Source: a virus. From it: DNA of 64,000 nt. The stretch lies in IMG/VR virus record IMGVR_UViG_3300010883_000009, positions 1-64,000 of that record; one strand, written 5' to 3'. The notes beneath the pieces were generated by a model, which saw only the letters and a program-made list of their open reading frames with translations, had not been told where the DNA came from and did not search any database. Below, piece after piece: positions 1,476 to 63,959 of this stretch; position 1 is the first letter of the stretch, and each line of letters starts with the position of its first letter. Made by a program: the position numbers and the translations under genes.

Positions 1476-1508
1476 GTACTTCAAAGATCTTCACATAAAT
1501 ACCTTCTT
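1476..1508 (-). promoter_or_regulatory. Family B promoter-like element before the 335-aa tail gene
   Basis: On the minus strand AAGGTATT is followed after 14 nt by TGAAGTAC. The match to the AAGGAATT-N13/14-TGAAATAG consensus of this window is moderate. It overlaps the 3' end of the upstream gene. Confidence 0.4.
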
Positions 1509-2058
1509 ATAAGATAGCTTTCATGCCTACTTCGTCGCGTATTCCTTTAAGAATGGCTTTGATAATGTCCGGGTCGAGTTGAACCATACGGGAGATGTCC
1601 TGTTCTAAGCTCCAACTTCTTACTAATGTAACCATTCTTGCCAACTCCAACTGAACGATATCAGAAATTTTCATTTCGTCAGGAGAACGATAAACACTAC
1701 TGTTGATGATAACCTCATAATCGCCTTGGCTCGGAAGTTTAAAGGTAACTGCGAACTCGTTAACATCCTGCGCTTCGTCAAATTCGGTATCTCCATCTTC
1801 AACGAAAAGTTTTTCTTCAATCTTATACCATCTGACCTTTACATCGAAAGTATCGTCTTCGGTAATGAAGATGTCCTCATTCTCTTCTTCCTCTTTCTGT
1901 TCTTCTGAAGTTTCCTTTTCTTCCTTGGCTTCAGGTTCTTCAGTTGTCTCAGCAGTAGCCTCGACAGCAGTTTCAGTTGCTTCAGTTGCTTCGACGACTT
2001 CTTCGACGACTTCTTCGACGGGAGCCTGCTCTTCTTTTACTTCTTTTTCTTCTGACAT
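1507..2058 (-). CDS. Acidic tail-region protein, possibly a second tail assembly chaperone
   Basis: The first ~65 residues are almost only E, A, T, V and K (very acidic, low complexity, disordered). From about residue 65 a compact domain follows that ends IKAILKGIRDEVGMKAIL. AGGAGG precedes the ATG. The folded half has the size and layout (beta segment, then helical C-terminus around a DPDIIKAIL stretch) of the tail chaperone encoded just upstream, whose end has SPDIAETIL. I infer a related assembly role, without proof. The plus-strand Ser-rich frames over this gene are shadows. Confidence 0.7.
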   Translation of the reverse strand: MSEEKEVKEEQAPVEEVVEEVVEATEATETAVEATAETTEEPEAKEEKETSEEQKEEEENEDIFITEDDTFDVKVRWYKIEEKLFVEDGDTEFDEAQDVNEFAVTFKLPSQGDYEVIINSSVYRSPDEMKISDIVQLELARMVTLVRSWSLEQDISRMVQLDPDIIKAILKGIRDEVGMKAIL

Positions 2059-2080
2059 GTCTTCCTCCTAATGTTGTTTA

Positions 2081-2311
2081 TCAAAATCGTTTCGATTGTC
2101 CACTGGACATCGCCTGTCCTCTTCCCTTGCTGTCTTGGACCTGTTGCGCGAAAGCCTGACTTTCTTGTTCGATTTCTCGTTGCTGTCTGCGAACGATATA
2201 GTACTCTTGTAACTGTCGGTAAGGGATCTGTCTTATTTCTTGCGGCAACCAGTGATATGCTTCCATTAATTCTGATTCGATGATCGCTCTTTTAACAGCA
2301 GACGTAACCAA
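2081..2311 (-). CDS. Tail assembly chaperone, second part (frameshift extension)
   Basis: This 76-residue frame (EAYHWLPQEIRQIPYRQLQEYY) has no good start: its first usable codon is TTG. It is in the -1 frame relative to the chaperone gene upstream and is open continuously from the A8 run at 2350-2357. A -1 slip there joins KK to ILEQTYNYIKGKG and then this frame. That is the gene G/GT arrangement known from many tailed phages, in which a minority of ribosomes make the long form that contacts the tape measure. The motif of aromatic and acidic residues resembles C-terminal parts of other long-form chaperones. I regard it as part of one frameshifted product spanning 2081-2775. Confidence 0.75.
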   Translation of the reverse strand: MVTSAVKRAIIESELMEAYHWLPQEIRQIPYRQLQEYYIVRRQQREIEQESQAFAQQVQDSKGRGQAMSSGQSKRF

Positions 2312-2343
2312 CCCCTTACCTTTGATATAATTATACGTCTGCT

Positions 2344-2775
2344 CTAGGATTTTTTTTCCGTCTCCTCATCGATTAGCGTCATCTGATCATATCTGTTCAG
2401 AATCGTTTCCGCTATATCGGGAGACATCTTTGTTATCATTTGTGGAGAAGGAGGTACGACTACAAATTCGCCCTCTTCATTTTTCGCTTTAGCATCCCAA
2501 TTAAGAATGATACTGCGAAGCTTGTTCTCTTTGTATACCTTGTAGTTCCATTTACGGTTGCCTAGTTGATCTGCAACCATCGCGTTTTCTTGAAGGTCGT
2601 TATACAACCCCCAAGTCAATTGTCTAGTATTGACCGTTAATTTCTTGAATTCTGCTTTCTCTTCTTCTGGCATATCAAGATCTTTAAAGGTCTCGTCGTC
2701 GTAGGACACGTAATGGCGTCCCACTTTCTTATAATAGACAACAACCGTCATTAGTTCTTCATCTTCTACAAACAT
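2344..2775 (-). CDS. Tail assembly chaperone, short form
   Basis: The start is chosen at ATG 2775 (MFVEDEELMTVVV), because AAAGGAGGT stands 5 nt before it; a frame 13 codons longer exists but has no ribosome site. The 143-residue product has a C-terminal SPQMITKMSPDIAETILNRY segment typical of helical chaperones. It lies between the tail tube gene and the tape measure gene, the usual place. It ends in GAA AAA AAA TCC TAG, a perfect slippery heptamer right before the stop. The short form should chaperone the tape measure during tail assembly and not be in the mature virion. Confidence 0.75.
   Translation of the reverse strand: MFVEDEELMTVVVYYKKVGRHYVSYDDETFKDLDMPEEEKAEFKKLTVNTRQLTWGLYNDLQENAMVADQLGNRKWNYKVYKENKLRSIILNWDAKAKNEEGEFVVVPPSPQMITKMSPDIAETILNRYDQMTLIDEETEKKS
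2350..2356 (-). promoter_or_regulatory. -1 ribosomal frameshift slippery site (A-AAA-AAA)
   Basis: The minus strand reads G-GAA-AAA-AAA-TCC-TAG, giving an X-XXY-YYZ heptamer of seven A just before the stop codon. Slipping -1 opens a frame that runs into the 76-residue ORF down to 2081. Position between short and long tail chaperones matches the lambda G/GT logic. Confidence 0.8.
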
Positions 2776-2804
2776 AGTACCTCCTTTGGTTATTGTTGTG
2801 ACTG

Positions 2805-2916: not shown

Positions 2917-3795
2917 TTAGAACGCTTGCGTACCTACTCCAGTAAATGCTACAGTCGAAATAATCGGACCTACGCTAGATGTTGGTTCGACTCTGTGGAA
3001 CTTAACATTAGCGACAATTGTCAAGCCGCCGATCCCAAACGTTACTGTTCCAGTGGCGGATGCTGCATTTTCCGCGTCTGAGTAACCATCCGCTCCGTCT
3101 GTATTAGAAGGAACATTGTAAGCCGAAATACTACCTGTAATCGTTCTCAATCCGGGAACCAGATCGAATGGGTAGTAGTTCGCGCTGCTATGAATCGCAT
3201 AGACAGGTTCTACGTTATTACTTAATGTAAATTCAAAATTGCTATAAACTGTTGAAGATGGAGCGTTTGTTCCGGTACAAGTTACAGAGAGGGCGTCCCA
3301 TGTCAAGAGCTTTTCTGCTGCTGCTCCAGTTACGCCACTCGATCCCCCTATCCATGCAGGAGGAGTTGGATCGCCTGCGCCCAAAACGTCAATAGAAAAC
3401 TGAGCAATATCCCCGGCAGAAGCCGAGAAAGTAATACTGTTGACATACATTTCGCCAAATGATCTTGCCGATTCGCTTCCTGTTGCTGAACCGCAAAAGT
3501 AGTAAAGATCTACTGTTTTAGCTCCTAACAATCCGCATGCGTCACGATCAACAGCCCAGTTCCAAACGGAGCCTGCTCCGCTACTCGCAAAGCTTTCTGT
3601 TACAGGACCAGAAATAGATCCATCTACCTGCGCTGGGCCATAAACGTAAGCCATACGATTAAAGTTCCCCATAATAAGATCTGGGGCATTGACTTCTTGT
3701 TTTACAGATATGTTGGCATCGCTAAAGCGGAGTTCGTTTGTCCCCGCGATGTTAGCATATCCCATGTAGCCTGCTCTAATATCGCCTATCGCCAT
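2917..3795 (-). CDS. Probable major tail tube protein
   Basis: The 292-residue protein starts MAIGDIRAGYMGYANIAGTNELRF after a good AAGGAG site. It is rich in G, S, T, V and A, with alternating beta-strand patterns (SADISVKQ-like, TGSISAYNV, GTVTFGIGGLTIV), as expected for a tube protein of stacked hexameric rings. Supporting context: a strong terminator directly behind it, its own family B promoter in front, and tail chaperone genes plus the tape measure next. No sheath gene is recognised in the window, so a non-contractile tail is possible but not shown. The function is an inference from order and composition. Confidence 0.65.
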   Translation of the reverse strand: MAIGDIRAGYMGYANIAGTNELRFSDANISVKQEVNAPDLIMGNFNRMAYVYGPAQVDGSISGPVTESFASSGAGSVWNWAVDRDACGLLGAKTVDLYYFCGSATGSESARSFGEMYVNSITFSASAGDIAQFSIDVLGAGDPTPPAWIGGSSGVTGAAAEKLLTWDALSVTCTGTNAPSSTVYSNFEFTLSNNVEPVYAIHSSANYYPFDLVPGLRTITGSISAYNVPSNTDGADGYSDAENAASATGTVTFGIGGLTIVANVKFHRVEPTSSVGPIISTVAFTGVGTQAF

Positions 3796-4239: not shown

Positions 4240-4638
4240 TTAATCATCAAGGGGTGAACTTGAACTTGAACTTTCTCCTAGACTTGAACTTGAACTGCTT
4301 TCGCCCAATGAGCTAGAGGAAGAACTGCTTTCTCCAAACGAACTAGAAGAACTCGAACTAGACTCTGCCAACTGCGCAGTCGTGGTGAAATACTCATAAT
4401 ACATGAGTGCCAACTGGTTAAAGTCAAAAGCCGCAGGATATCCCGGAGGCGTATCTGCCATAGTCCGAACTCTAAACGTCGGGAATGTGCCTCCTGCAAG
4501 AGTTGGAATCGTCGTAGATACCAACAAATAATAATCAACTTCGCCAGTGGTAGTATCGTCCAAAACTCCAGAAGCGATGTTGAGATCGATATTTAACGTA
4601 GTATTCGTCTCTTGATTGTAGATTTTTATTTGTGCCAT
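4240..4638 (-). CDS. Tail-region protein with C-terminal serine repeats
   Basis: Residues 1 to about 92 form an ordinary beta-rich domain (MAQIKIYNQETNTTLNIDL). The last ~40 residues are runs of 5-8 serines separated by GE, LGE, FGE and PLDD. The serines use mixed AGT/AGC/TCA/TCT/TCG/TCC codons, so the repeat is kept at the protein level rather than by simple DNA slippage. Similar tails end the next upstream gene and fill a loop in the 498-aa protein at 17.7-19.2 kb. Such segments are likely flexible, surface-exposed and possibly glycosylated. Its family B element is at 4696-4727. Confidence 0.7.
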   Translation of the reverse strand: MAQIKIYNQETNTTLNIDLNIASGVLDDTTTGEVDYYLLVSTTIPTLAGGTFPTFRVRTMADTPPGYPAAFDFNQLALMYYEYFTTTAQLAESSSSSSSSFGESSSSSSSLGESSSSSSLGESSSSSSPLDD

Positions 4639-4695: not shown

Positions 4696-4727
4696 CTATT
4701 TCATATGCCTTACCCGTAATTCCTCTT
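4696..4727 (-). promoter_or_regulatory. Family B promoter-like element before the Ser-tailed 132-aa gene
   Basis: Minus strand GAGGAATTAC, then 13-14 nt, then TATGAAATAG; one of the best matches to the family. About 58 nt lie between it and the ATG at 4638. Confidence 0.55.
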
Positions 4728-4807
4728 TTATTTTTTGAGGATTAACGGCGCTAAGCTTACAATTAATTTGTCTTTAATTTATTCTTCAATAACGGGGTAA
4801 AATCCTC

Positions 4808-6003: not shown

Positions 6004-6237
6004 TTATCCTCCGAAAATGTCACTCAATTTATCTTTAACAAACTGAACGTCTGGATCGGTATTCTGAACCTTGATTAATTCCTCTTTGTTCTTTCGCAAT
6101 CGAGTGACTGGTTCTAAAGACCTACGAGATGCCGGATCGGTGTCTCCTTGTTTCTTTTTATGGACAATAGCCTCAAGATCGCTACCCAAAAGGCGCGTTT
6201 CTCTAGCCATTTCAGCAAGTGTATCAGCTAATGACAT
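6004..6237 (-). CDS. Small coupled neck-region protein (77 aa)
   Basis: The protein starts MSLADTLAEMARETRLLGSDLEAIVHKK, is charged and helical, and ends VKDKLSDIFGG. Its ATG overlaps the TAA of the adaptor gene (TAATG), so translation is coupled. No family recognised. Confidence 0.65.
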   Translation of the reverse strand: MSLADTLAEMARETRLLGSDLEAIVHKKKQGDTDPASRRSLEPVTRLRKNKEELIKVQNTDPDVQFVKDKLSDIFGG

Positions 6238-6938
6238 TATTGTTTTTCCCTACCAAATTGGAACTCGGGCGTCGGGTTTTGGTAAGCGTCAAACAGCGAT
6301 CCTCTAACAAACCTCATACCCGTATGGTCCTGACCAAATAGAAGAGCCGATCCGCTTAGGATGTTATCCATGCTATTGATCGCTAACCTTCTCTGCTCCT
6401 TGCCGTATTCAGAAACGTTCGGAGCTTGTTCTGCCGCGAACAATTGATCGAAGCAGTATGAGATCGCCAAACGAGCGGTTACTAACGGGATGGGATCTGG
6501 AAATTCCAGAATACTAATTTTACTGTTATCCATCACATAAGTATTTTTAACTTGGTTGATAACGAGAGTGGTCATATTTTTGACAGAACCAATATCGTCA
6601 GTTTCCATTTGGCTACGGCTTTGCAGACGCACCATCTGTCCTTTAGAAAAAACCCCTGTATCGTGAACTCTAACCTCAACAGAAGATCCATTCATAACAT
6701 TTTGAAGGATTTCTGTCTCAAAAGTTTTAACTCGACGCAATGGGCAAACGTAATAAGGACGCAAACGGGAATCGACTTCTTCTTCAGCAAACCGTATATA
6801 ACGGATCGCTTCATCAGGCGTCAATTTTGATCGACTTGCTGGATCAGTGCGTCCCGGAGACGGCGTTCCAATATTGGTATCTCCGATTGTAATCGGCTCT
6901 GGCAAGAGCGCTATCATATCTTGTACTGTGCAATACAT
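6237..6938 (-). CDS. Head-tail adaptor, DUF1320/gp6-like
   Basis: MYCTVQDMIALLPE at the N-terminus and TPDEAIRYIRFAEEEVDSRLRPYYVCPL around residues 40-70 resemble the helical connector family (DUF1320, HK97 gp6-like) in which small proteins form a ring under the portal. The 233-residue length is longer than the usual ~130-150, with an extra C-terminal part. It precedes the tail genes, as expected. The family B element at 6975-7006 serves it. Confidence 0.65.
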   Translation of the reverse strand: MYCTVQDMIALLPEPITIGDTNIGTPSPGRTDPASRSKLTPDEAIRYIRFAEEEVDSRLRPYYVCPLRRVKTFETEILQNVMNGSSVEVRVHDTGVFSKGQMVRLQSRSQMETDDIGSVKNMTTLVINQVKNTYVMDNSKISILEFPDPIPLVTARLAISYCFDQLFAAEQAPNVSEYGKEQRRLAINSMDNILSGSALLFGQDHTGMRFVRGSLFDAYQNPTPEFQFGREKQ

Positions 6939-6974: not shown

Positions 6975-7006
6975 TTATTTCAACAACCATAGCCTTAAAT
7001 CCTTGT
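6975..7006 (-). promoter_or_regulatory. Family B promoter-like element before the adaptor gene
   Basis: Minus strand AAGGATTT, then 14 nt, then TGAAATAATAA. Strong match, between the actin-like gene and the adaptor gene. Confidence 0.55.
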
Positions 7007-7015
7007 ATCGGGAGG

Positions 7016-8194
7016 TTATTTGGATTTTTTACTATAGTCAGCCTGTGCGCGGATGCAAGCACCCTGAGAAACCGAATAAAAAGGCGTATCAGAATGCCTA
7101 ACTCGATATACATTAAATGGCAACTCAGAACTTTCGATAGCCTTACTCAGTCTATCACAAAATCCGGGAGCCATTGAAGTTCCTCCAGCAACAACTATCT
7201 CAACCTCGCCGTCCAATTCGCTGTTTAGATCTTTGAATTGCTGACTAATATGATGAACCATACGCTCAACCATCTCGTCACTATATACAGATAGCGCAGC
7301 TTGTATTCTGTCCGACATATCAACATTACCCAAATCAAGCTTCTTTTCCTTGACTTTGATAACTTTGCTTTTCTTAAACCCTGTCATGGTCGCTACCTGT
7401 TCATCCAAATAATCTCCAGATTTAGTGCAAGAAAACTCAACAATACTCAATCCCTTGTAGGCAAGAGCCAAATTCCACATACCTCCGCCGCAACTGCAAG
7501 TTATACCGCTCAATGGAACCTCTTCTTCATCTTCTTTCATGATAGGGTTACAATCATAAGTAATACACATTGCTTCATTGACCGGCTTGGCATCATAACC
7601 CATGCGTTCAAAGAAGTTTTGCAGAATCATTTCATGGAATTTGTTATTGATAGGAGAGTCAACGGGATCAGCAGGGACAGAAAACCTTAACGATTCTCCT
7701 TCCACCTTAGGATCGCCAACTACCGCTTTGATAATGTAGAAAAGCAATTCTGTAGATTCTTGGAGAGAAGGATTAAGAATCCCATCCTGCATAGGACGGA
7801 CTACTTCGCCTTTGCCAATTGCGTTGACTAATGTCAAAGCATCTTCCCCAACTACAAAATACTTCTTGCCAACTTTAACATAGAGATAGCTGCTCTTTTC
7901 GAGCAAATCCATAGCTTCCTCTGAAATATCAAGCGGATAAAGCATGTTACGATGGAAACGGTTTACAAACGTTCCATCTTTTGTTCTACGGGCAACTACA
8001 ATGTTGCTCGTACCAATATCTACGCCACAACCCGGCAAATACTCAACTGCTTCGTCTTCCTCATTAGCGATTTTGACAGTTGTTTGATTTTGAGAATCTT
8101 GGACGGGTTGAGCTTCTTCATTTGATTCTTTCTTAGGTGCTTCGCCGTTGCCAGCTACATCTTCCAAGACCTCATCTAGAATATCGTCGCTCAT
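7016..8194 (-). CDS. Actin/Hsp70-superfamily ATPase-like protein
   Basis: After an acidic ~50-residue N-terminal extension the protein shows the actin-fold signature: phosphate-1 loop CGVDIGTSNIVVA (residues ~57-68), phosphate-2-like SCGGGMWNLAL (~234-244) and adenosine motif VVAGGTSMAPGF (~336-347). Family members such as ParM, MreB, FtsA and PilM bind ATP and often form filaments. Oddly, the phosphate-2 Asp is replaced (S-C-G-G-G instead of D-x-G-G-G), so hydrolysis may be altered. GAGGAG precedes the ATG. It sits with head-tail genes, which is unusual for a segregation filament; it might help virion assembly or positioning in the cell. Confidence 0.7.
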   Translation of the reverse strand: MSDDILDEVLEDVAGNGEAPKKESNEEAQPVQDSQNQTTVKIANEEDEAVEYLPGCGVDIGTSNIVVARRTKDGTFVNRFHRNMLYPLDISEEAMDLLEKSSYLYVKVGKKYFVVGEDALTLVNAIGKGEVVRPMQDGILNPSLQESTELLFYIIKAVVGDPKVEGESLRFSVPADPVDSPINNKFHEMILQNFFERMGYDAKPVNEAMCITYDCNPIMKEDEEEVPLSGITCSCGGGMWNLALAYKGLSIVEFSCTKSGDYLDEQVATMTGFKKSKVIKVKEKKLDLGNVDMSDRIQAALSVYSDEMVERMVHHISQQFKDLNSELDGEVEIVVAGGTSMAPGFCDRLSKAIESSELPFNVYRVRHSDTPFYSVSQGACIRAQADYSKKSK

Positions 8195-12465: not shown

Positions 12466-12971
12466 TATACTGTCCATTTATACATGATTTTTGGTTCCGC
12501 CCAATTCTCTGTAGTAACCGTATATCTATCACCTAAAGCGCTTATATCACCTATAATAACTTCAGGAACAGGATCTTCCAACTCGTCATTAAACTGATCT
12601 GCCGTAATGTCAATGATCATGTTGTTCAACTGAACCCAATAATGAAGCGGAGTATATGTTGCAGCTTCCATGGCTTGTTCCGCATATTGCATCTCTTCTT
12701 CTTCAGTCTCCATTGGTTCGGCAGGCAAAAAATCCTTTGCATCCATTTCGCTCCAAGCATCTATATCAGGAGTATCAACTGTAAACGTTCCCTGTGTAAC
12801 AGATGCAGCGTTATATCCGTTGTTAATGAGGATTTGAGCCAGATGCCTTGAAACAGGAAGACAAAGAGCTTTTAAACTATCATCGTCATCACGCAAGAGA
12901 GAATTTCTAACCTGAGTCGCTATCTGTTCTACTGACGGAGGCTCTTGCGCTATCTTATACCAACTTTTCAT
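12465..12971 (-). CDS. WYKIAQ-tagged papain/transglutaminase-fold-like protein
   Basis: ATG 12971 is chosen since TTTGGAGGACT precedes it and the product then starts MKSWYKIAQEPPS. Cys37 begins a helix (CLPVSRHLAQILINNG), His110 starts a strand (HYWVQLNNMIIDITADQF) and Asp121 follows, a Cys-His-Asp order seen in papain-like and transglutaminase-like enzymes. This is a motif-level call; catalysis is not proven. It could be a protease, amidase or transglutaminase acting on host protein. Confidence 0.6.
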   Translation of the reverse strand: MKSWYKIAQEPPSVEQIATQVRNSLLRDDDDSLKALCLPVSRHLAQILINNGYNAASVTQGTFTVDTPDIDAWSEMDAKDFLPAEPMETEEEEMQYAEQAMEAATYTPLHYWVQLNNMIIDITADQFNDELEDPVPEVIIGDISALGDRYTVTTENWAEPKIMYKWTV

Positions 12972-13158: not shown

Positions 13159-13191
13159 GTATTATTTCTCCAACAGAATAGCGAAACCCTT
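13159..13191 (-). promoter_or_regulatory. Family B promoter-like element for the 13.1-8.9 kb operon
   Basis: Minus strand AAGGGTTT, 14 nt, then AGAAATAATAC, starting 15 nt behind the terminator at 13206-13225. Confidence 0.5.
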
Positions 13192-13205
13192 GCCATAAAT
13201 AGAAA

Positions 13206-13645: not shown

Positions 13646-13941
13646 CAATCTCTCTTCAAAAAAATGAACTCAAAACCCTTTGTCATAAGGAAATAACACT
13701 CTTTATTGCCCCACATTGACTTTGCGAAATAAGAATCCGGATCGTCTGCAATAAATTCTTCCAATGATTCATCTTCAAGCAAAACAGCATGATCACACAT
13801 CATCTGGAATTCTTCCATAGGAACCTTTTGATGTTGAGCAATCATATTCTGCCAATTATCTTCTCCCACTTTATCACAACGCATTCTGTCGCATTGACCG
13901 AAGTATTGGAAAGGTTGAAATGCTAGTCGATAAATTCTCAT
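13645..13941 (-). CDS. MRIYRLA-tagged small protein (98 aa)
   Basis: ATG 13941 overlaps the upstream GNAT stop by ATGA. It starts MRIYRLAFQPFQYFGQCDRMRC and contains DHAVLLEDESLEEFIADDPDSYFAKSMWGNKECYFLMTKG, which looks like a complete small domain. Unknown function; small size and tag suggest membership of the cargo set. Confidence 0.7.
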   Translation of the reverse strand: MRIYRLAFQPFQYFGQCDRMRCDKVGEDNWQNMIAQHQKVPMEEFQMMCDHAVLLEDESLEEFIADDPDSYFAKSMWGNKECYFLMTKGFEFIFLKRD

Positions 13942-21048: not shown

Positions 21049-21080
21049 TTCTATTTCAAGAAAAAAGTGGCTGAATCCTT
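21049..21080 (-). promoter_or_regulatory. Family B promoter-like element before the 246-aa virion gene
   Basis: Minus strand AAGGATTC, 14 nt, then TGAAATAGAA. The TGAAATAGA also forms one arm of a 9-bp hairpin in the leader. Confidence 0.5.
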
Positions 21081-21086
21081 TACCTA

Positions 21087-27296: not shown

Positions 27297-27355
27297 AGGA
27301 TACAAGAGCTTAAAGCTACAAGGACAAAAAACACAACAAATAGAAGTATATAACC

Positions 27356-36857: not shown

Positions 36858-36895
36858 GGATAATATTTCCACGAACCTAGATGAAAACCCTTGTA

Positions 36896-39558: not shown

Positions 39559-39589
39559 CCTATTCTATAACTTTAGGTGAAATCCCTTT
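39559..39589 (-). promoter_or_regulatory. Family B promoter-like element for decoration and capsid genes
   Basis: Minus strand AAAGGGATTTC, 12-13 nt, then TAGAATAGG. It follows the terminator at 39621-39645 by 32 nt; the rest of the leader down to 39404 (about 155 nt) shows nothing clear. Confidence 0.45.
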
Positions 39590-39620
39590 TTTTAATTAGT
39601 AATTTTTACGGATACAGAAA

Positions 39621-52176: not shown

Positions 52177-52207
52177 CTATTTCATACATCCTGCGGTAAT
52201 TCCTTCT
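52177..52207 (-). promoter_or_regulatory. Family B promoter-like element before the 331-aa gene
   Basis: Minus strand AAGAAGGAATTAC, then 12-13 nt, then TATGAAATAG; among the closest matches. It follows the terminator at 52220 by about 13 nt. Confidence 0.6.
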
Positions 52208-52219
52208 TTTTTGAGCAAC

Positions 52220-52255: not shown

Positions 52256-52465
52256 CTAGCGATTTCTACGCTTTCTTATATTATGTATCGACATATAGTC
52301 GATAAAAGTCATATAGCTTTGAGCAAAACGATATTGCTCCGACTCAGGCAAAGAAAGCCAAAATTTAGTTACTTCGTTGTATTTCTCCGACTTCTTTTTG
52401 CGTCTATATACAGTAACTCTGTATCTATAATTGTAATCCTTGGCTTCTTGTGATTCGCCTTTATT
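52256..52465 (-). CDS. Start-less 69-codon frame after the ATPase (probable frameshift extension or broken gene)
   Basis: An open frame (..KDYNYRYRVTVYRRKKKSEKYNEV.., ..FWLSLPESEQYRFAQSYMTFIDYMS..) begins only 4 nt before the ATPase stop and runs to a TAG 4 nt before the terminator. It has a TGA just upstream and no ATG, GTG or TTG before its middle. Reading AAA TAA A with a +1 step would join it to the ATPase. It fills the space to the terminator and looks genuinely coding. A lost base or true recoding are both possible. Confidence 0.45.
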   Translation of the reverse strand, partial: NKGESQEAKDYNYRYRVTVYRRKKKSEKYNEVTKFWLSLPESEQYRFAQSYMTFIDYMSIHNIRKRRNR

Positions 52466-55400
52466 TCAACTCTTTGAAGCCGGGTTCAGGCTCAGTCTTC
52501 TTCTTGTCAAAATCAAACTGCTCTTGTTCCTCTTTGTCACCCTTTTTCATACGACGAAATACCTCTCGATCTCCAAGAATCAACTCACCTGTTGAATCAT
52601 CGTCTTTCATGGAACCTTCGCAATATTCCAGCACCTTGACGAAGTTTTCCGTATTCCATTCCAAACCCTTCTCACCTCGTTTGAGATAGTAATGATGAGC
52701 CGCCATTTCCATAACAAGAGTTTCAACGTCTCGAACAGTAAAGCCCTTCATGGTACAAAGTTCTGCAACTTGATCCAAATCAAGACCGTCAATGGCTTTT
52801 TGCAACGCTTCATGCGTCATGAAGCCAAGAACCTTGATCTCTCGATTTTTCATTCTACGACCCGTTGTTTTGAGGGTCTCCTTCATAGATTCCGAATCAA
52901 AATTGTCAATGTCAATTACCAAATCTACACGACCTGATCTCAACATTGGACCTGTAATCGTTTCTTTATGGTTCGTAGTCATGACAACGAAAATGTTTCG
53001 CTTAGCGAATTCGTTCTCTTCTTGACCATTCTGCAACCAAGCCATGAACTCAGACTCGACTTGCTTATGAGCCTCATGCATACCTGCCGCAGAGTCATTA
53101 GTTGCACCGATTGCTCTATCATATTCATCGATACGAACGATTACATGAGAAGAGTTCATAATAGCCTGAATTGACTTCCTTGCTTGTTCGGAACCCTCTC
53201 CAACCCATTTAGAGTGAACTGCATTAACATTGAAATCCCAAATATCGAATCCCAAAAGTCCTGCCAAGTGGATCGGGAATGCAGAGTTATGAGTTACTGT
53301 GTAGTCTCCAAGTAAAAATTGGTTATCTCCATCTACTTCAAAACCAAAGTAATCGCCAACACCAATCGGTTCAACATCAATACCACATTTTACTCCAATT
53401 TTTTGAGGATTGTCATGCGCTTGTTTCCTCTCTAGAAGCGTAGGGATTTCGGATAGGTTTCCCCCAAACGTAACCGTATAGCATCTTATTTTGTAGTTTC
53501 TAGATTTAAGCGTCTTTATAGATGATGTCTCAAAAACCTTAAAACCTAAACTTCTACCCAAGTCAGCCACATCTTTTGCCAATCTTTCATTGACGTTAAA
53601 GAACTGTAACGAGCCGCTTTTGGTTTGATATCCGTCAGAGTCTATTAATCCTGCCAAAAGAGCCAATCGATTCTTTCTAGAATTAACCTTATAAACATTT
53701 GGAATGTGTTTATTTCCATATATATCTGTTGACCTGAGCGCAGCCTTTACAAAATTGTCTGCATATCCGCTACCTTGACGAGGTGAGAAATTTATTACCT
53801 CTGCTTTAGTTGTCGTCCGGTTTTCAACTCTGACGAATAAATTATTCGCCTTAGCCCAATCCATTAACCATTCCCGAACTGAATTATCTTTATCACCAAC
53901 GGTTATTGCAGGTTTTTTAGAAGTACCGTCTCCTAACCATAGTCCTGTCCAGTACGGGTCAAGGGGCAAATCTTGCTTAGGATACTCAACACCTGTTTTC
54001 CATCCGTAGTGAGTTTTCTTCCATGTTTCCCCTTTCTGTACATATTCTTCAGCAGAAATAAAAACCGGATCGTCTTGGAATCTCCCCTCTTTCTTCAAAG
54101 ACAAAATGTGTTTGTCATTGCAAATATAGTTGTCGCCATTTCTTTGACTAATCTTGTATAGCTCTCCTACGCCCTTTGTCGTTCCGAGAATCTTGCGGGG
54201 AGTCGAATCTGGACCCATTAAGATGTCATCCAATTGCACGTCTTCTACATTCTTCTTGGACCCATCAAACATGATAACTGGAGTTCCTTGACCAAGGCAT
54301 TTACCAACTCCGCCTTTGCCGAATAGAACAGAAACGTGAGGCATCCGCGTTTGAATGCGTTCAATCAGATCTTCGAATTGAGATTCATCCTTTCCTGCTT
54401 CAACAGCCTTTTGAGAACGCTTACGAAGCTCAGAAACCTCTCTGAAGTCTCTGAGTAACTTCTCTACATCCCAAGTAAAGTTGCTTGACTCAGGCGCAAT
54501 GTAATCTTCCCATGGACGAGGCGTTAACTGTGTTAAACCATATCCTTTGTCCATGAATTTCTGATTGATTGTTTTACGAAGAGTTTTTATCGCTTTAATG
54601 CTGTCGATCTTCTTAGATTTTGGGGGTTCTTCAGAAGCAGCCAACGAAGCAGCCAAAACATCTCCCGCTTCAGTATAAGTCAAACCTGCCAACTTACGAA
54701 CAATCTGTTCGCGCTGCGCTTTGCTGAATTTAACTTGGTATTTTGCGTTAGTGTACAGATCAGTGAAACTCTCAATGATATGATTAGCTTCATGCTCATC
54801 AACTGGACTTATTTCAAGCGTTCTAACTTGGAAAGGCAATTTTAGTTTGACGTTTGAAATCAATAACATACGGCAACCCTTTTTGATGCTAGGGTTGCGG
54901 AAATTATCGAAAACGTTCAATGCCTTAGGCTCAACTACTCCGGGATTCTCCTTGAAGCAGAAGTCAACTGCGAAATCAACATTTTTGATGATCAACAGCT
55001 TATCCTTGAATCTACCTTGTAGAACTTCTCGACGACTAACAAATCCGTCAGGCTTCCTTTTGCGTTTTCCAGTTTGAGGATCTGTTTTCGGTATTGGGAT
55101 ATCCATGTCTGGATCTTGTTCTGTTTCGATAGAACCGTAGATCAACTCGTCAAGATAACCATAACTACGCCCTTTGCCGGGTTGACCATGCTGAAGCTCA
55201 ACAGCATCAATGTCAGCGGTGTTGTTGTAGAGTTCTTGCATTTTGAAACATTCCTTCATTAACGCATCTACTAAGCAAGGGTCTTCGTGATTAACTACGA
55301 AATTTGTAATACCGGTCAACGACAGCTTGGTAGAGACTATAAGCTCTTCCTTGAGCTTTTGGAATGTCTCGCTAGACTTGACCAAAGACGTAAAATTGAT

Positions 55401-55511
55401 ATCCGACCCTTTCTTGGGCGGAGCGGTGGCTGCGGATGCTGCCGATGCTGCCGGGGGCTTTACAGCAACCGTTTTTGAGTCAGTTTTTTGTGTTGTGTTA
55501 GTCGTTGGCAT
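52461..55511 (-). CDS. AAA+ ATPase (Ycf46-like) interrupted by an intein
   Basis: ATG 55511 (MPTTNTTQKTDSK) is chosen because TTGGAGACGCTT precedes it. The host protein has an N-terminal degenerate AAA-like part (~1-330: LLIIKNVDFAVDF, RMLLISNVKLKLP, LTYTEAGDVLAAS) as in Ycf46 proteins and a C-terminal active AAA+ module: Walker A GKGGVGK|S, WVGEGSEQARKSI, Walker B VIVRIDEYDRAIG, sensor MTTNHKETI and the arginine finger LRSGRVDLVIDI. A 338-residue intein sits between K and S of Walker A, so ATPase activity depends on splicing. Role: probable remodelling of proteins during infection. Ycf35-like partners are encoded at 33.4 and 62.4 kb. Confidence 0.8.
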   Translation of the reverse strand: MPTTNTTQKTDSKTVAVKPPAASAASAATAPPKKGSDINFTSLVKSSETFQKLKEELIVSTKLSLTGITNFVVNHEDPCLVDALMKECFKMQELYNNTADIDAVELQHGQPGKGRSYGYLDELIYGSIETEQDPDMDIPIPKTDPQTGKRKRKPDGFVSRREVLQGRFKDKLLIIKNVDFAVDFCFKENPGVVEPKALNVFDNFRNPSIKKGCRMLLISNVKLKLPFQVRTLEISPVDEHEANHIIESFTDLYTNAKYQVKFSKAQREQIVRKLAGLTYTEAGDVLAASLAASEEPPKSKKIDSIKAIKTLRKTINQKFMDKGYGLTQLTPRPWEDYIAPESSNFTWDVEKLLRDFREVSELRKRSQKAVEAGKDESQFEDLIERIQTRMPHVSVLFGKGGVGKCLGQGTPVIMFDGSKKNVEDVQLDDILMGPDSTPRKILGTTKGVGELYKISQRNGDNYICNDKHILSLKKEGRFQDDPVFISAEEYVQKGETWKKTHYGWKTGVEYPKQDLPLDPYWTGLWLGDGTSKKPAITVGDKDNSVREWLMDWAKANNLFVRVENRTTTKAEVINFSPRQGSGYADNFVKAALRSTDIYGNKHIPNVYKVNSRKNRLALLAGLIDSDGYQTKSGSLQFFNVNERLAKDVADLGRSLGFKVFETSSIKTLKSRNYKIRCYTVTFGGNLSEIPTLLERKQAHDNPQKIGVKCGIDVEPIGVGDYFGFEVDGDNQFLLGDYTVTHNSAFPIHLAGLLGFDIWDFNVNAVHSKWVGEGSEQARKSIQAIMNSSHVIVRIDEYDRAIGATNDSAAGMHEAHKQVESEFMAWLQNGQEENEFAKRNIFVVMTTNHKETITGPMLRSGRVDLVIDIDNFDSESMKETLKTTGRRMKNREIKVLGFMTHEALQKAIDGLDLDQVAELCTMKGFTVRDVETLVMEMAAHHYYLKRGEKGLEWNTENFVKVLEYCEGSMKDDDSTGELILGDREVFRRMKKGDKEEQEQFDFDKKKTEPEPGFKELK
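53286..54299 (-). mobile_element. Intein with LAGLIDADG endonuclease inside the ATPase Walker A motif
   Basis: It starts with Cys (CLGQGTPVIMFDG, block A) and ends YTVTHN followed by Ser+1. Block B is represented by ICNDKHILSL. The endonuclease part holds TGLWLGDGTS and LLAGLIDSDGYQ. Block F is DYFGFEVDGDNQFLLGDYTV. All splicing residues (Cys1, block B His, penultimate His, Asn, Ser+1) are present, so it should splice and be mobile. Confidence 0.92.
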
Positions 55512-55545
55512 AAGCGTCTCCAAGTTCTAGTTATAGATTTGAATC

Positions 55546-55629: not shown

Positions 55630-56415
55630 TTATTTTTCGTAGTTCGTGGTCATCAACTTGGCGTAGTCGGCTACGTATCCCAAGTCGTCTTTCCAGAACT
55701 TCAAAACTTTCTTGCGAGTGGTCGGGCTGATTTTACTCGTCTTAACGAGATCATCTACGCTAGCTTCCTTCAGAAGCTCTTCCTTATCGGACTTTGCAAA
55801 TGCTCCACAAGCTTCAGCCTCTTCGTCAGACTCTTGAATAATGTCTTCGCCGCCTTCTTCAACGTCTTCAACAATATCAATCTCGATAACCGCTTCGTCA
55901 GAAACGTCAGTAATGTCTTCAACAACGTCTTCAACAACGTCTTCGGCTGCGTCGGCTGTTACGCCTACGGCATCCTTAACGGCTTCAACTGCTTCTTCGA
56001 CTTTAGCAACTGCTTCTGTAACTGCTTCCGCGACCTCATCGGCTGCTTCTGATTTCTCTACGAGGTCGGCAACTGCTTCCTGAACGTCTCCGCTAACTGC
56101 TTCTTCAACGTCATCAGTTACGTCAGTTACTTCGTCAGCTTCGTCGTCGTCGTCGTCATCATCGTCAACTTCGTCCACTTCCGTGTCGTCGAATTGAGCT
56201 TCTACTACCTTCTTGGCTGCTTCGTACAGCAAATCCTTATCGGTCTTTGCCTCAACAACCGCTTCTTGAGAAGCTTGCTCGTCGGCTTGTTCGGTATTTT
56301 CTTCGATTGATGCTTCGGTGGATTCCTCGTTGGCAGAAGCCGTTCTTACCATCTCTTCTGGGTCTGTAGGACTCCATTCGAAGTCTGTTTTTCCAACTGG
56401 TGTAATAACTGCCAT
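55630..56415 (-). CDS. Acidic scaffold-like protein (261 aa)
   Basis: After MAVITPVGKTDFEWSPTDPEEMVRTASANEES the protein is dominated by D, E, V and A (residues ~45-205), including a run of eight Asp, then a more normal C-terminal ~60 residues (SDKEELLKEASVDDLVKTSKISPTTRKKVLKFWKD, in parts). EEMVRTASA is a tag-like/cleavage-like site. Such proteins serve as scaffolds or internal decoys. Its plus-strand Ser/Thr-rich frames are shadows. A family B-like element is at 56455-56486. Confidence 0.65.
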   Translation of the reverse strand: MAVITPVGKTDFEWSPTDPEEMVRTASANEESTEASIEENTEQADEQASQEAVVEAKTDKDLLYEAAKKVVEAQFDDTEVDEVDDDDDDDDEADEVTDVTDDVEEAVSGDVQEAVADLVEKSEAADEVAEAVTEAVAKVEEAVEAVKDAVGVTADAAEDVVEDVVEDITDVSDEAVIEIDIVEDVEEGGEDIIQESDEEAEACGAFAKSDKEELLKEASVDDLVKTSKISPTTRKKVLKFWKDDLGYVADYAKLMTTNYEK

Positions 56416-56454: not shown

Positions 56455-56486
56455 TTAATTCTTTATTATGTTCTCGATTCCTTCTT
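56455..56486 (-). promoter_or_regulatory. Family B-like element before the acidic protein gene
   Basis: Minus strand AAGAAGGAATC, 13 nt, then AGAATTAA; the -10-like half is weak. Confidence 0.35.
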
Positions 56487-56712
56487 ATTTCTTGCTTTGT
56501 GCTGAAGCATATTTGAACGACCAATCTCCGCCACTCAAATCTTGATACTCTTCTATACAAGAAGTAATCGCCGCTTGCGCTGCCATTCCTGCCGAAACCT
56601 TAGCCTTGTAACAGTCCATCCAGTTACGACTTTGGCTTTTCATCAACGCCTGAGCATCTTCGTAGTAAGCTGTACGTCGAAATGCCTTCAGGTTAAACAC
56701 AGTAGTTTTCAT
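56485..56712 (-). CDS. Unknown small protein (75 aa)
   Basis: MKTTVFNLKAFRRTAYYEDAQALMKSQSRNWMDCYKAK starts a small helical protein with two Cys and ends WSFKYASAQSKK. FRRTAYY and FKYASAQ resemble the x-R/K-x-A motif. No family recognised. Confidence 0.65.
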   Translation of the reverse strand: MKTTVFNLKAFRRTAYYEDAQALMKSQSRNWMDCYKAKVSAGMAAQAAITSCIEEYQDLSGGDWSFKYASAQSKK

Positions 56713-56717: not shown

Positions 56718-56748
56718 CTTATTCACGGTTTATTGGCGAATTCCTTCT
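56718..56748 (-). promoter_or_regulatory. Family B promoter-like element before the 75-aa gene
   Basis: Minus strand AGAAGGAATTCG, 12-13 nt, then GTGAATAAG, ending only a few bases from the ATG at 56712. Confidence 0.4.
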
Positions 56749-56759
56749 CTTATCTTTGT

Positions 56760-59486: not shown

Positions 59487-61928
59487 CTATTTCATCTTTC
59501 GTAGCTTCCACAGCCCGAAATCATCAAATAATCTATCTGCTTCTTTCTTTCCTTCAGAACGGATACTTTCCCTTGCAAATAAAAGATCGAACTCTGAAAT
59601 ACCTCCTTTGAACAAAGAAGCAGAACTAGATATCATAGAATGAACTAAATCTCTATCAATATCCAAATCATACTGCAACTTTAACTTCAAAGCTCTCAAA
59701 ATAATCACTGGGTTATTCTTAACAAGTCTCTTTGGATCAGAGTAAGTCTTAAGAATACCCTTACGAACTGCCTTCTGAGCAACCCTTAGTGGATCAATAA
59801 CGTCCCCCGTGACTACGTTAAAGGCGAACATATTGATCGTAAAATCTCGGCGTAACAAATCAATAACGATTTGACTACGCTGCGACTTGCGTAACATAGA
59901 GAGACGAGCAAGCTCTTCTTTTCTTGATGTCAAGCTAAATTCTACCTTAATTCCCTTATAGGCAAATGTTAAATCGTCACCGATTTCTGGAACAACTCCC
60001 AATTCGCTAGCCAACAACTGTCCAATCTGACCGTTGGTACGTGCTGATTTTGTTGAAAAATCTAGTTGCTCTACATCGGGATTATCATTCCCCATCACCC
60101 TTTCTCTTGCATACATCCCAACGATATGAAGATCCTCAATTTCTGCTCTCTCGGCAATCGACTTGGCAATATCAACGATCTCTTCGACTGCCTGAGATCT
60201 GCAATAAGAAAATCCAAGAAGATCTTCGATCAAATCATCCAAATCTTCAGAAGACTTATCACTTTGGAAACGAGCTTCTGCTTTACGCAACGTATCGGCA
60301 GGAACAGAAGTATCGGTAATCCATATCGAATAGATGAACTCTTCATCCATTGTTCTTCCAAAACGAAATGACTTGAGATTGATGCCTTCGCATTCAACAA
60401 CCTTTTTAATGAACGGATAAATATCGCTAGTGACAACTAATCGAGTAGCTTTCATCTTCCCCAACAATATACGTTCTTTGATTACTTCCAAGATACGCAA
60501 AATCTGCGGAATGTCACTTTCTACATCTGTTTCTACTTTGGCAAAACGTTTTGCAGGATGTACATTAGAATTATCCTCTACCATTTCATCCCATAGTTGC
60601 GGTTTAAAACGTGGCTCAATCCATCTGTAATAGAATCCCTTAAGATCGTATGACGGATTGTATCGAGGTTGGCTCTTAATCCATGTCTCTTCTTCGGAGA
60701 AACTTTCATCTCTATCATCCCACGCCATAACCCTGTCTCCAAGACCGGGAATAGTAGAACCGTCCGAAATCTCAAGATTGTTATACCATCCGAAAAGCGT
60801 AGCTTCTTTCTTCATCTTAGAAGCCGTCTTTCCTAATGGGACCATAAGAGGTTGCGGTCTACGTTCCTCCATCAACTGTTCAAGGGTCTTATACCCAGCA
60901 GTTTCATCATGGTCTTTGGAAAGCAACTCTTCATATATTAACTGAGGATTTGGAACAAAATCATTAGCGAACTGTTTGCGGAGTTGCTTCTCTACGATAT
61001 CGTGAATCTGACTAAGATCAGGGGCTAATGGCCACGTGAAACCTCTACCCAATCGTTCCTCAATAGGAACATTCTGATCTTGTTGAGCCATCATACCCCA
61101 ATCTGCCATACCTGCTTCAGGAGATGGCGATCTACCTGTCCGTCCTGACAAATCAGAACCCGTTGGTTTGTTTTGCATGGACTTAGGAACATAACTCGTA
61201 TATTGAGAAAAACGATACCAATTCCTTTTACCAGCCATGATAGGCATATCTTCGCCGGACTCCGTTTGGTATTTCTGTTTGATGTTTTCCATCATCTGTC
61301 CAGCAAAATCTGCTTCTCTACCTTGAGCGGCACCTTCGTCTCCGCCCATGGAGTGCTCCCATTCATGAACTATGGTAGCTCCTAACTCCAGCATGATTAA
61401 CATATCCCAAAGAAGGTTTGGATTGGAGATAGGGACTCCCGCTGCTTCAGCATCATTAGCAATCTTCAGCATATTTTGTTCTGTAGCGCTTTTGACTTTA
61501 TTCATGTTAACGCCAAGAACTTCACTCTTACCGGTATTAATCTGATCCCAAACCTGTTTGATTTCTGATTGGACTTGTTCGTTAGGCTTATCCTGATCCT
61601 TTGGGTAGGCAACGAGCATCTTGTTCTCTTCTTTAATCTCGTACCCTCTGCCCTCTAATTGCGCTTGCAACTCGTTAGCTTTAACTTCTTCTACGAGAGA
61701 GGGGATATATACGCCGTAAGCTCCTTGATTAGAAAAGTCAAAAATGTAAGATACATCTTGCGATATTTGAGGAGCATATTGGTACACCAACTCCATAGTT
61801 TCGGCTGTTCTTGAGAACATAGAAGAAAGCTGAGAGAAGTCGATACTACCGCCGGGACTGTATTTAGGAGTGTCCCCGCTATAGTACTGAGAATAATCTT
61901 GATTTTGAGATTCCTTTTCCATATTCAT
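59487..61928 (-). CDS. Zincin-like and degenerate nucleotidyltransferase fusion (813 aa)
   Basis: N-terminal part: ELGATIVHEWEHSMGGDEGAAQGREADF holds HEWEH (His188, Glu189, His192) and a following Glu205, a metallopeptidase zinc site. A tag-like NWYRFSQYTSYV lies near residue 229. The C-terminal ~320 residues resemble the tRNA nucleotidyltransferase head: VGMYARERVMG, EQLDFSTKSA, GIKVEFSL, RRDFTINMFAFNVVTGDVIDPL and RALKLKLQYDLD. In the usual D-x-D one Asp is replaced (Q621-L-D623), so catalysis may be lost. It is likely a virion protein. A second, intact nucleotidyltransferase is at 27.4 kb. Confidence 0.7.
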   Translation of the reverse strand: MNMEKESQNQDYSQYYSGDTPKYSPGGSIDFSQLSSMFSRTAETMELVYQYAPQISQDVSYIFDFSNQGAYGVYIPSLVEEVKANELQAQLEGRGYEIKEENKMLVAYPKDQDKPNEQVQSEIKQVWDQINTGKSEVLGVNMNKVKSATEQNMLKIANDAEAAGVPISNPNLLWDMLIMLELGATIVHEWEHSMGGDEGAAQGREADFAGQMMENIKQKYQTESGEDMPIMAGKRNWYRFSQYTSYVPKSMQNKPTGSDLSGRTGRSPSPEAGMADWGMMAQQDQNVPIEERLGRGFTWPLAPDLSQIHDIVEKQLRKQFANDFVPNPQLIYEELLSKDHDETAGYKTLEQLMEERRPQPLMVPLGKTASKMKKEATLFGWYNNLEISDGSTIPGLGDRVMAWDDRDESFSEEETWIKSQPRYNPSYDLKGFYYRWIEPRFKPQLWDEMVEDNSNVHPAKRFAKVETDVESDIPQILRILEVIKERILLGKMKATRLVVTSDIYPFIKKVVECEGINLKSFRFGRTMDEEFIYSIWITDTSVPADTLRKAEARFQSDKSSEDLDDLIEDLLGFSYCRSQAVEEIVDIAKSIAERAEIEDLHIVGMYARERVMGNDNPDVEQLDFSTKSARTNGQIGQLLASELGVVPEIGDDLTFAYKGIKVEFSLTSRKEELARLSMLRKSQRSQIVIDLLRRDFTINMFAFNVVTGDVIDPLRVAQKAVRKGILKTYSDPKRLVKNNPVIILRALKLKLQYDLDIDRDLVHSMISSSASLFKGGISEFDLLFARESIRSEGKKEADRLFDDFGLWKLRKMK

Positions 61929-61958
61929 CTATTTCTTGATTTGCTCTCCAAATCCCTA
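61926..61958 (-). promoter_or_regulatory. Family B promoter-like element before the zincin fusion gene
   Basis: Minus strand TAGGGATTT, 13 nt, then AGAAATAG, running into the ATG; 8 nt behind the terminator at 61966. Confidence 0.45.
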
Positions 61959-61965
61959 TAAAAAA

Positions 61966-62379: not shown

Positions 62380-62390
62380 GATCACTCTCC

Positions 62391-62822
62391 TTACGTCAAT
62401 AGCTCTCTGGCTTTTTCGGCGTCAACGCGAATGTCGGTAACAATTTCCTCGTCACCATTCTCGTTGCGTAATACTTCGTATCCTCGCATTTGAGCGAGTG
62501 CCAAAGCTTTCATACGCATTACTTCGCCAGTTAATTTTTGCTTCAGCGCTCCGATAGAGTAATCTCCACCGATTTCCCATGTCCCGTTCTCGTTACGATT
62601 CAAACCGATATCGCTATAAAGATTGGGGATTTTACGTCCGGAACCTTCAACAACAATTTGGAATATATCCTTGACTGGACTGCCATGAAATTTTGCTTGT
62701 AACCCACCCTGTTCATCAACCTTAACATGTTCTTCCCATTCGGGCATAACATTAATCAAAGCTTTTTTCAGGATATTGAGGCTGCATTTTAGCTCAATTT
62801 TACCTGTTTGCCAATGGCTCAT
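62391..62822 (-). CDS. Ycf35/DUF1257-like protein, copy 2
   Basis: ATG 62822 is chosen for TAAGGAGAACCAGT before it; product MSHWQTGKIELKCSLNILKK. It is the paralogue of the plus-strand gene at 33389-33868, and MSHW plus the C-terminal ALAQMRGYEVLRNENGDEEIV match the DUF1257 style. A family A element lies 55 nt upstream inside the protease gene end. Probably a partner of the Ycf46-like ATPase. Confidence 0.65.
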   Translation of the reverse strand: MSHWQTGKIELKCSLNILKKALINVMPEWEEHVKVDEQGGLQAKFHGSPVKDIFQIVVEGSGRKIPNLYSDIGLNRNENGTWEIGGDYSIGALKQKLTGEVMRMKALALAQMRGYEVLRNENGDEEIVTDIRVDAEKARELLT

Positions 62823-62855
62823 ACTGGTTCTCCTTATCAACTTCTAAATGACAAT

Positions 62856-63920
62856 TTACTTTGTCTTTATGTCATTCATTATACAGAAGTTTTTAAAATA
62901 ATAAGAAGGTAAACCGACATTCAATCCATACTCTCCATCCTGTGCAACAATGGATGTCAACATGCCAACAACCTCTCCATTATCTGTCTTGACGATAGGA
63001 CCGCCGCTATTGCCTTGAAAAACTGGTGCATCTATGAAGAAATACTTAGGAGAACCCTGATGACCATAGATCTGTCTACCCATAGATCCAACGTTGCCAA
63101 ACGATACATTATTTTCAAAACCATGGGGACTTCCAATGGTTAAGATATCGTCTCCGATCTGCATCGAGGCTACGTCTAGTGCAAATGGCTCTACGTCTAT
63201 CTCAGCTTTCAATATGGCTATATCCCATGCAGCATTCATAGCAACAATCTTGGCAGGGATGCGCCGTCCATTCTGAATGATATGGACTTCGACTCGATCT
63301 GTATAGTCTTCTAAATCTATATGAGACTCAATGCTCTTATCATAATTGATGATGACATGTGCGCAAGTTAAAAAGGTTTGGGGAGCTATGCAAAATGCTG
63401 CGCCAGTTTCTTTGACAGAATGATAAGTGTCAACTGACTCAACTTTAAAGGTACGTCTTAGGGATGCCGAAACAGTTTGAACACGATCTTGATTTTGAGC
63501 AACGCGAGCGATCCATTTGATAGGAACATTCTTTTCTCGCATCTTCTCTCTAAACTGCTGTACCAAGTTGAATGACGGAAATGTTTTGGCTCCGCCCGGG
63601 ATCTTAACTTTCCAAGTTTCGCTTTCGTCAGGATAAAGAGCGGTCATCTTGTTAAAGATTTCCATGTCCCGTTCTTTACGTTTGTAAAGGTCGCCTTCGT
63701 CTTTGTACGAACTGAAAAGTTCGTCAGACTTTTCGCCTCTACCCCAATCCCCGCCTGCATTCGGTAATACGTAATTACGTCCGTCCATAACGTCCTGAAT
63801 AGTATGGACATTATTTGTGGGAACAACCGAGCGATTAGTTGGTGTAGATAGACCAGTACCCGGAGCAATAATCTCGGGCATGAAAGTACGTGACTCTTTC
63901 TTTAACTTGATAAATTTCAT
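62856..63920 (-). CDS. Trypsin-like serine protease (S1/HtrA-type)
   Basis: The C-terminal ~190 residues carry the chymotrypsin-fold triad: FLTCAHVI (His188), AWDIAILK (Asp233) and FQGNSGGPIV (Ser305), with GSPHGFENNVSFGNVG in the second barrel. No signal peptide or PDZ domain is seen. The first ~130 residues are a separate region, and KWIARVAQNQDRV (~136-146) is a tag-like site right before the protease, perhaps autoprocessed. In a phage this enzyme may act during assembly or be delivered to the host. Confidence 0.82.
   Translation of the reverse strand: MKFIKLKKESRTFMPEIIAPGTGLSTPTNRSVVPTNNVHTIQDVMDGRNYVLPNAGGDWGRGEKSDELFSSYKDEGDLYKRKERDMEIFNKMTALYPDESETWKVKIPGGAKTFPSFNLVQQFREKMREKNVPIKWIARVAQNQDRVQTVSASLRRTFKVESVDTYHSVKETGAAFCIAPQTFLTCAHVIINYDKSIESHIDLEDYTDRVEVHIIQNGRRIPAKIVAMNAAWDIAILKAEIDVEPFALDVASMQIGDDILTIGSPHGFENNVSFGNVGSMGRQIYGHQGSPKYFFIDAPVFQGNSGGPIVKTDNGEVVGMLTSIVAQDGEYGLNVGLPSYYFKNFCIMNDIKTK
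62877..62885 (-). promoter_or_regulatory. Family A promoter-like element inside the protease gene end
   Basis: TGTATAATG on the minus strand, 55 nt before ATG 62822. It overlaps coding sequence, so it could be chance. Confidence 0.35.
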
Positions 63921-63928
63921 AACAAATA

Positions 63929-63959
63929 CAATTTCAATGTATTCGCTGTAAATTCCTTT
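63929..63959 (-). promoter_or_regulatory. Family B promoter-like element before the serine protease gene
   Basis: Minus strand AAAGGAATTTA, 13-14 nt, then TTGAAATTG, immediately behind the stop of the partial gene at the window edge. Confidence 0.5.

What the first reader, a model, noticed from the sequence alone, without database searches (positions are those of the whole stretch)
1476..63959. Family B promoter-like element before twelve genes
On the minus strand AAGG(A)ATT, 12-14 nt, TGAAATAG-like boxes occur at 1476, 3811, 4696, 6975, 13159, 21049, 39559, 52177, 56455, 56718, 61926 and 63929, each close upstream of a gene start and mostly in intergenic gaps. This does not match a sigma-70 promoter; GGAATT plus TGAAA is loosely reminiscent of extracytoplasmic-function sigma promoters. 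A phage-encoded or hijacked sigma factor for late structural genes is the inference.
Basis: partly seen in the sequence, partly recalled or inferred. Interest (0 to 1): 0.74.

Follow-up and report, generated by a model that had tools for sequence, protein, structure and literature searches.

The report
Sigma-H-type promoters in a jumbo phage
This giant phage and its relatives carry more than a hundred copies of a promoter that matches the one read by the bacterial sporulation-onset factor sigma-H; large relatives encode their own sigma-H-like protein, and many of the resulting messages appear to start exactly at the gene's first codon.

Summary
A matrix trained only on nine related phages scores all twelve listed sites at 15.4 or more and adds further sites (4810, 13683, 36895, 27317+). 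A plain AGGDW...GAAWWA pattern in ten phage genomes gives 97 and 24 noncoding-sense hits at spacers of 18 and 17 nt, against 0-12 at 18 other spacings; coding-sense counts stay flat. Genes with a site keep it in relatives (55/70 ortholog pairs, against 12/68 for control genes). Boxes and spacing equal those of sigma-H promoters (AGGA, 17-18 nt, GAAT). The phage matrix scores 28 of 40 Clostridioides difficile SigH promoters at 13 or more, against 1.25% of shuffles. The 476-kb relative (capsid protein 93% identical) encodes a SigH-like sigma factor; nine other relatives have one with the same region-4 helix. Bacillus phage G's sigma lacks that helix, and the 91 kb of phage G scanned lacks the promoter. 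ATG codons peak 12-13 nt after GAA, where SigH transcripts start, so many mRNAs are probably leaderless. Most likely a phage-encoded SigH-family sigma factor steers host RNA polymerase to late virion genes. Binding, timing and starts are inferred; the window's record is a 93.9-kb fragment without a sigma gene.

The parts
1476..1508 (-). SigH-type promoter (AGGT..18 nt..GAAG) upstream of gene 449-1456
   Evidence: score 16.1 with matrix trained without this genome
3814..3845 (-). SigH-type promoter upstream of minor tail protein gene 2917-3795
   Evidence: score 16.0; orthologs in G007 and G006 keep it
4696..4728 (-). SigH-type promoter, downstream member of a tandem pair, upstream of 4240-4638
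   Evidence: score 15.7
   Evidence: score 20.2; orthologs in G007 and G006 score 20.6 and 20.8
6975..7007 (-). SigH-type promoter between the Volactin (actin-family) gene 7016-8194 and gene 6237-6938
   Evidence: score 19.9; rank 3 of both strands of the 93.9-kb record with a C. difficile SigH matrix
13162..13194 (-). SigH-type promoter upstream of small ORF 12955-13152
   Evidence: score 16.2
13651..13683 (-). additional SigH-type promoter, with an ATG 12 nt after the G of GAA
   Evidence: score 17.9
21051..21083 (-). SigH-type promoter upstream of gene 20271-21011
   Evidence: score 16.7; kept in G007, G001, G006, G011
27317..27349 (+). additional SigH-type promoter; ATG of the poly(A) polymerase/CCA-enzyme gene 27356-29491 lies 13 nt after the G of GAA
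   Evidence: score 14.2; same leaderless layout in the related G005 gene
36863..36895 (-). additional SigH-type promoter; an ATG follows 12 nt after the G of GAA; upstream of gene 36223-36771
   Evidence: score 15.6; G007 ortholog 21.1
39559..39591 (-). SigH-type promoter of the decoration protein gene 38891-39403, followed by the major capsid gene; lies just after a terminator hairpin
   Evidence: kept at the same place in ten relatives; score 19.7; rank 2 of both strands with the C. difficile SigH matrix
52177..52208 (-). SigH-type promoter upstream of gene 51125-52120 (operon that reaches the portal gene)
   Evidence: score 16.6; kept in G001, G002, G003
56455..56486 (-). SigH-type promoter upstream of gene 55630-56415
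   Evidence: score 17.9; rank 4 with the C. difficile SigH matrix
56718..56749 (-). SigH-type promoter of the leaderless 75-aa gene 56485-56712 (ATG 12 nt after the G of GAA)
   Evidence: score 16.3; same layout in G001, G002, G003, G006; promoter kept in 7 of 8 orthologs
61929..61961 (-). SigH-type promoter of the 813-aa gene 59487-61928; conserved leaderless ATG 13 nt after the G of GAA
   Evidence: score 17.4; same layout in G001 and G003
63929..63961 (-). SigH-type promoter of the trypsin-like protease gene 62856-63920; ATG 15 nt after the G of GAA
   Evidence: score 15.4; motif at 14 or more in 8 of 9 orthologs; related layout in G003, G004, G006

Best explanation
The boxes are the -35 (AGGA) and -10 (GAAnWA) elements of one promoter class recognised by a phage-encoded sigma factor of the sigma-H (Spo0H) family. 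That protein binds the host's core RNA polymerase and directs it, after the early phase, to transcription units for virion and associated genes. The promoters often lie just behind the previous unit's terminator. Transcription starts 12-13 nt after the G of GAA. For roughly a sixth of strong sites this puts +1 on the A of the ATG, giving leaderless mRNAs; the other units have short leaders with a ribosome-binding site. Shown here: the motif, its spacing, its conservation, its identity with sigma-H promoters, a SigH-like gene in large relatives, and the ATG peak. Inferred: binding, timing, transcription starts, and that this phage's missing part carries the sigma gene.
For: Spacing: noncoding-sense AGGDW-GAAWWA hits number 97 at 18 nt and 24 at 17 nt, against 0-12 elsewhere, with flat coding counts; the same with a classification independent of gene calls (87 and 25 against 1-8). 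Leave-one-genome-out 124 against 14. Conservation 55/70 against 12/68, p 2.7e-13. Published sigma-H promoters: -35 AGGA, -10 GAAT, 17-18 nt spacer (PMC12456013). The phage matrix scores 28 of 40 C. difficile SigH promoters (PMC7438776) at 13 or more, shuffles 1.25%; 20 of 29 aligned ones end, taken as the mapped start, 12-13 nt after GAA. SigH-like sigma in the closest long relative (best NCBIfam matches all SigH/PRK08295, 2.2e-25) and in nine others, with invariant K, D, N, R, K in region 4, aligned with solved sigma-H 3mzy. In G021 and G010 it is the only sigma-70 region-2 protein found, and both show an excess of noncoding-sense promoters (14 against 3 and 3 against 0). No RNA polymerase beta subunit in ten virus records and phage G. 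Early/late split in G007: 2 and 19 sites, with sigma-70-like sites 35 and 9, p 8e-8. ATG at 12-13 nt: 34 observed, 6.5 expected.
Against: No sigma gene lies in the window's own 93.9-kb record, which is a fragment. The phage proteins score below NCBI's curated SigH cut-offs. G007 encodes three other sigma-70-family proteins, so assignment to the SigH-like one rests on family resemblance. The fourth base of GAAT is as often A as T. Some non-virion genes carry sites. No RNA data exist. In one relative, G018, the excess is absent at score 15 (2 against 2).
Confidence: 0.8

Rival explanations
1. The promoters are read by the host's own sigma-H, as in Firmicutes entering stationary phase, and the phage SigH-like protein does something else, such as disturbing sporulation.
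For: The phage matrix fits C. difficile SigH promoters well. Published work found phage sporulation-like sigma factors dispensable or aimed at host dormancy (PMC9429907).
Against: Ten relatives keep a SigH-like gene. The one isolated relative, phage G (Bacillus host), has a divergent sigma and lacks the promoter in the 91 kb scanned. Virion genes depending on a stationary-phase host factor would be unusual.
Confidence: 0.12
2. The promoters are read by one of the other phage-encoded sigma factors (RpoD/RpoS/RpoH-like; three in G007).
For: G007 carries three such proteins.
Against: Two relatives in which only the SigH-like sigma was found still show the promoters. Only the SigH-like proteins carry the KxVDNxxxRxRKK-type helix shared with solved sigma-H.
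Confidence: 0.05
3. The boxes are an activator or repressor site upstream of an ordinary -10 (in the style of T4 MotA), not a sigma -35 and -10 pair.
For: TAGAAT and TGAAAT resemble TATAAT loosely (sequence).
Against: Both boxes, the 17-18 nt spacer and the start distance equal those of mapped sigma-H promoters; a SigH-like sigma is present in relatives.
Confidence: 0.03
4. Chance motif or by-product of A+T-rich intergenic DNA and ribosome-binding sites.
For: The first unguided motif search returned the ribosome-binding site.
Against: Mirror, spacing and leave-one-out controls and ortholog conservation.
Confidence: 0.005

Closest known systems
Sigma-H (Spo0H/SigH) promoters of Firmicutes
   Same: -35 AGGA, -10 GAA(T/A), 17-18 nt spacer, start 12-13 nt after GAA
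   Different: Located in phage genomes before virion genes; fourth base of GAAT is relaxed; a strong A at the sixth position of GAANWA; many leaderless genes
Phage sigma factors for phage gene classes (T4 gp55, phiEco32 gp36, SPO1 gp28 and gp34)
   Same: Logic: a phage sigma redirects host core polymerase to a middle or late class (cited in PMC5312081 and PMC9429907)
   Different: Different sigma family; SPO1 gp28 and T4 gp55 promoters have other -10 boxes (from memory)
Phage sporulation-like sigma factors (SigF/SigG-like, PMC9429907; SigH among those listed in gut phages, PMC10294663)
   Same: Phage homologs of a bacterial sporulation-cascade sigma factor
   Different: Those were dispensable or changed host sporulation; here the phage genomes themselves carry the matching promoters in quantity
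Bacillus phage G
   Same: Capsid relative (56% identity) with a weak SigH-like sigma, gp69
   Different: gp69 lacks the SigH recognition helix and the 91 kb scanned shows no excess of the promoter

Membership tests
Sigma-H promoter class | -35 AGGA | tested here: met
   AGG nearly invariant, A the commonest next base
Sigma-H promoter class | -10 GAAT | tested here: inconclusive
   GAA 93-98%, fourth base A 39%, T 37%; C. difficile SigH promoters also have A in 9 of 29
Sigma-H promoter class | 17-18 nt spacer | tested here: met
   97 and 24 against 0-12
Sigma-H promoter class | start 12-13 nt after GAA | tested here: inconclusive
   Indirect: ATG peak at 12-13 nt; no RNA data
Sigma-H promoter class | loss of transcription without SigH | not testable with these tools
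   needs an experiment
SigH-family sigma factor (relatives, not the window) | homology over regions 2 to 4 | tested here: met
   SigH models are the best matches, 2.2e-25
SigH-family sigma factor (relatives, not the window) | NCBI curated SigH cut-off | tested here: not met
   89.5 bits against a cut-off of 212; so a distant relative, not an equivalog
SigH-family sigma factor (relatives, not the window) | region-4 recognition helix KxVDNxxxRxRKK | tested here: met
   invariant K, D, N, R, K in ten proteins; aligned with 3mzy
   -10 is GAANWA; ECF consensus from memory
Sigma-70 (housekeeping) promoters | TTGACA - 17 - TATAAT | tested here: not met
   matrix; sigma-70-like sites have a different distribution in G007

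The most novel reading that the evidence does not exclude
A widespread group of jumbo phages related to phage G has made a SigH-family sigma factor its main late-gene switch, with a large set of cognate promoters, and couples it to a conserved set of leaderless mRNAs whose +1 is the start codon, so that sigma choice and translation mode are linked for these genes.
Probability: 0.6. Interest if true: 0.78.

Novelty: new variant of a known kind. Interest (0 to 1): 0.7.

Why it matters
Phage homologs of sporulation sigma factors have been read mainly as tools against host dormancy. Here a SigH-like phage sigma comes with a large matching set of promoters in the phages' own genomes, which points to a core role in virion gene expression. 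It gives a transcription strategy for a large uncultured group of jumbo phages in which no RNA polymerase beta subunit was found, predicts transcription starts base by base, and offers conserved leaderless genes to test how such messages are translated. The papers searched hold no such promoter class for jumbo phages, but only open-access text was searched.

Tried and rejected
Unguided two-box motif search on upstream regions returned the ribosome-binding site, so a matrix was built from orthologs of one site instead. The literal consensus AAGGAATT/TGAAATAG found little in relatives, mostly coding matches, because the true right box is GAANWA. EM trained on mirrored DNA also fits something, so counts from self-trained matrices were not used as proof; leave-one-out, plain-pattern and spacing tests were. 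Phage collections held no near DNA match. Searching viral contigs with the G007 SigH-like protein found only itself, and the alignment of these proteins was too divergent for that tool. The single-subunit RNA polymerase search rang in no control and says nothing. The capsid search in bacterial genomes gave no clear host. ECF, sigma-70 and T4-late readings were rejected on box and spacing.

Full report
What the window is. The window is the first 64 kb of a 93,875-base virus record. Its capsid protein is 56% identical to that of Bacillus phage G, a 497-kb phage, and relatives by capsid protein lie on contigs of up to 548 kb. The record is therefore most likely a fragment of a jumbo phage. Identified genes include portal, capsid, decoration, tail and protease genes.

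Check of the observation. All twelve sites are present. The literal consensus gave six hits at 14 or more of 16 matches on the minus strand, none on the plus strand and none in reversed DNA. To avoid circularity I took one site, 39559, found the same intergenic gap in relatives, and saw the element kept there in ten of them while the flanks had diverged. A matrix from those orthologs was refined on ten phage genomes. Trained without the window's genome, it scores all twelve reader sites at 15.4-19.9 and adds others.

Controls. Leave-one-genome-out at score 16: noncoding gene-sense 124 against 14 in mirrored DNA; coding-sense 41 against 43. A plain pattern without any matrix, AGG[AGT][AT]-Nx-GAA[AT][AT]A, gives 97 noncoding-sense hits at an AGGN-to-GAA spacer of 18 nt and 24 at 17 nt, but 0-12 at the other 18 spacings tested, while coding-sense counts stay between 11 and 31 at all. 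Replacing gene predictions by a simple long-ORF mask gives 87 and 25 against 1-8. Among all trinucleotide pairs at that distance, AGG-N19-GAA and its reverse complement rank highest. Own genes with a site keep it upstream of 55 of 70 orthologs; control genes with at least 80 nt of upstream space show it in 12 of 68 (p 2.7e-13; the scoring matrix there had seen these genomes, equally for both groups).

What it is. The published sigma-H promoter has AGGA, a 17-18 nt spacer and GAAT (PMC12456013). I scored 40 SigH promoters of C. difficile (PMC7438776) with the phage matrix: median 15.4, 28 at 13 or more, against 1.25% of shuffles. The reverse test, a matrix from the C. difficile promoters, finds 125 noncoding-sense sites in the phages against 37 in mirrored DNA, and ranks reader sites 39559, 6975, 56455 and 63929 at 2, 3, 4 and 6 on both strands of the record; others rank lower, 56718 at 109.

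The sigma factor. The window's record has none. G007, the longest close relative (476 kb, capsid 93% identical), has four sigma-70-family proteins. One of them (163344-164222) matches SigH models best, 2.2e-25, below the curated cut-off. SigH-like proteins at 77-135 bits occur in nine further relatives, with an invariant K..DN...R...K region-4 helix that aligns with solved sigma-H 3mzy. In G010 and G021 it is the only sigma-70 region-2 protein found, and the promoter is in excess there. Phage G's gp69 lacks the helix and its scanned DNA lacks the promoter. No RNA polymerase beta subunit was found in ten virus records of the group or in phage G, so host core polymerase is presumed.

Timing. In G007 the promoters are rare in the first 80 kb (2) and common in the last 96 kb (19), which holds the capsid region; sigma-70-like sites show the opposite, 35 and 9. 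This supports a late class but is not a time course.

Leaderless messages. Among 180 strong noncoding-sense sites, ATG peaks at 12 and 13 nt after the G of GAA: 34 observed, 6.5 expected. C. difficile SigH transcripts start at the same distance, if the last base of each listed promoter is the mapped start, as the table's format suggests. The layout recurs in orthologs: the 75-aa gene in five genomes, the 813-aa gene in three, the CCA-enzyme gene in two. I infer that these messages start at their start codon.

Verdict. The finding is confirmed and its inference supported, with sigma-H in place of ECF. It is a new variant of a known kind: phage sigma factors and sigma-H promoters are both known, but I found no report of their pairing as a late system in jumbo phages.

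Noticed in passing
window 39403-39560 (leader of gene 38891-39403) and the same place in L003-L011: The roughly 160-nt leader of the decoration protein gene keeps a long-range TTGGC...GCCAA complement near its two ends; L010 has TTGGT...ACCAA instead, a possible compensatory change.
   Followed up: partly
window 7016-8194 (-): Actin-family protein matching Pfam Volactin at 1.4e-61 in a phage genome.
   Followed up: no
window 52461-55523 (-): AAA ATPase gene interrupted by an intein with Hint and LAGLIDADG endonuclease domains.
   Followed up: no
window 27356-29491 (+) and 59487-61928 (-): Two separate proteins with poly(A) polymerase/CCA-enzyme head domains, both apparently leaderless.
   Followed up: partly
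L222:2001-2834: A capsid protein 59% identical sits on a 1.36-Mb contig labelled Armatimonadetes: possible host hint or mis-binning.
   Followed up: no
window 47419-49698 (-): Portal protein with an HNH endonuclease-like C-terminal part.
   Followed up: no
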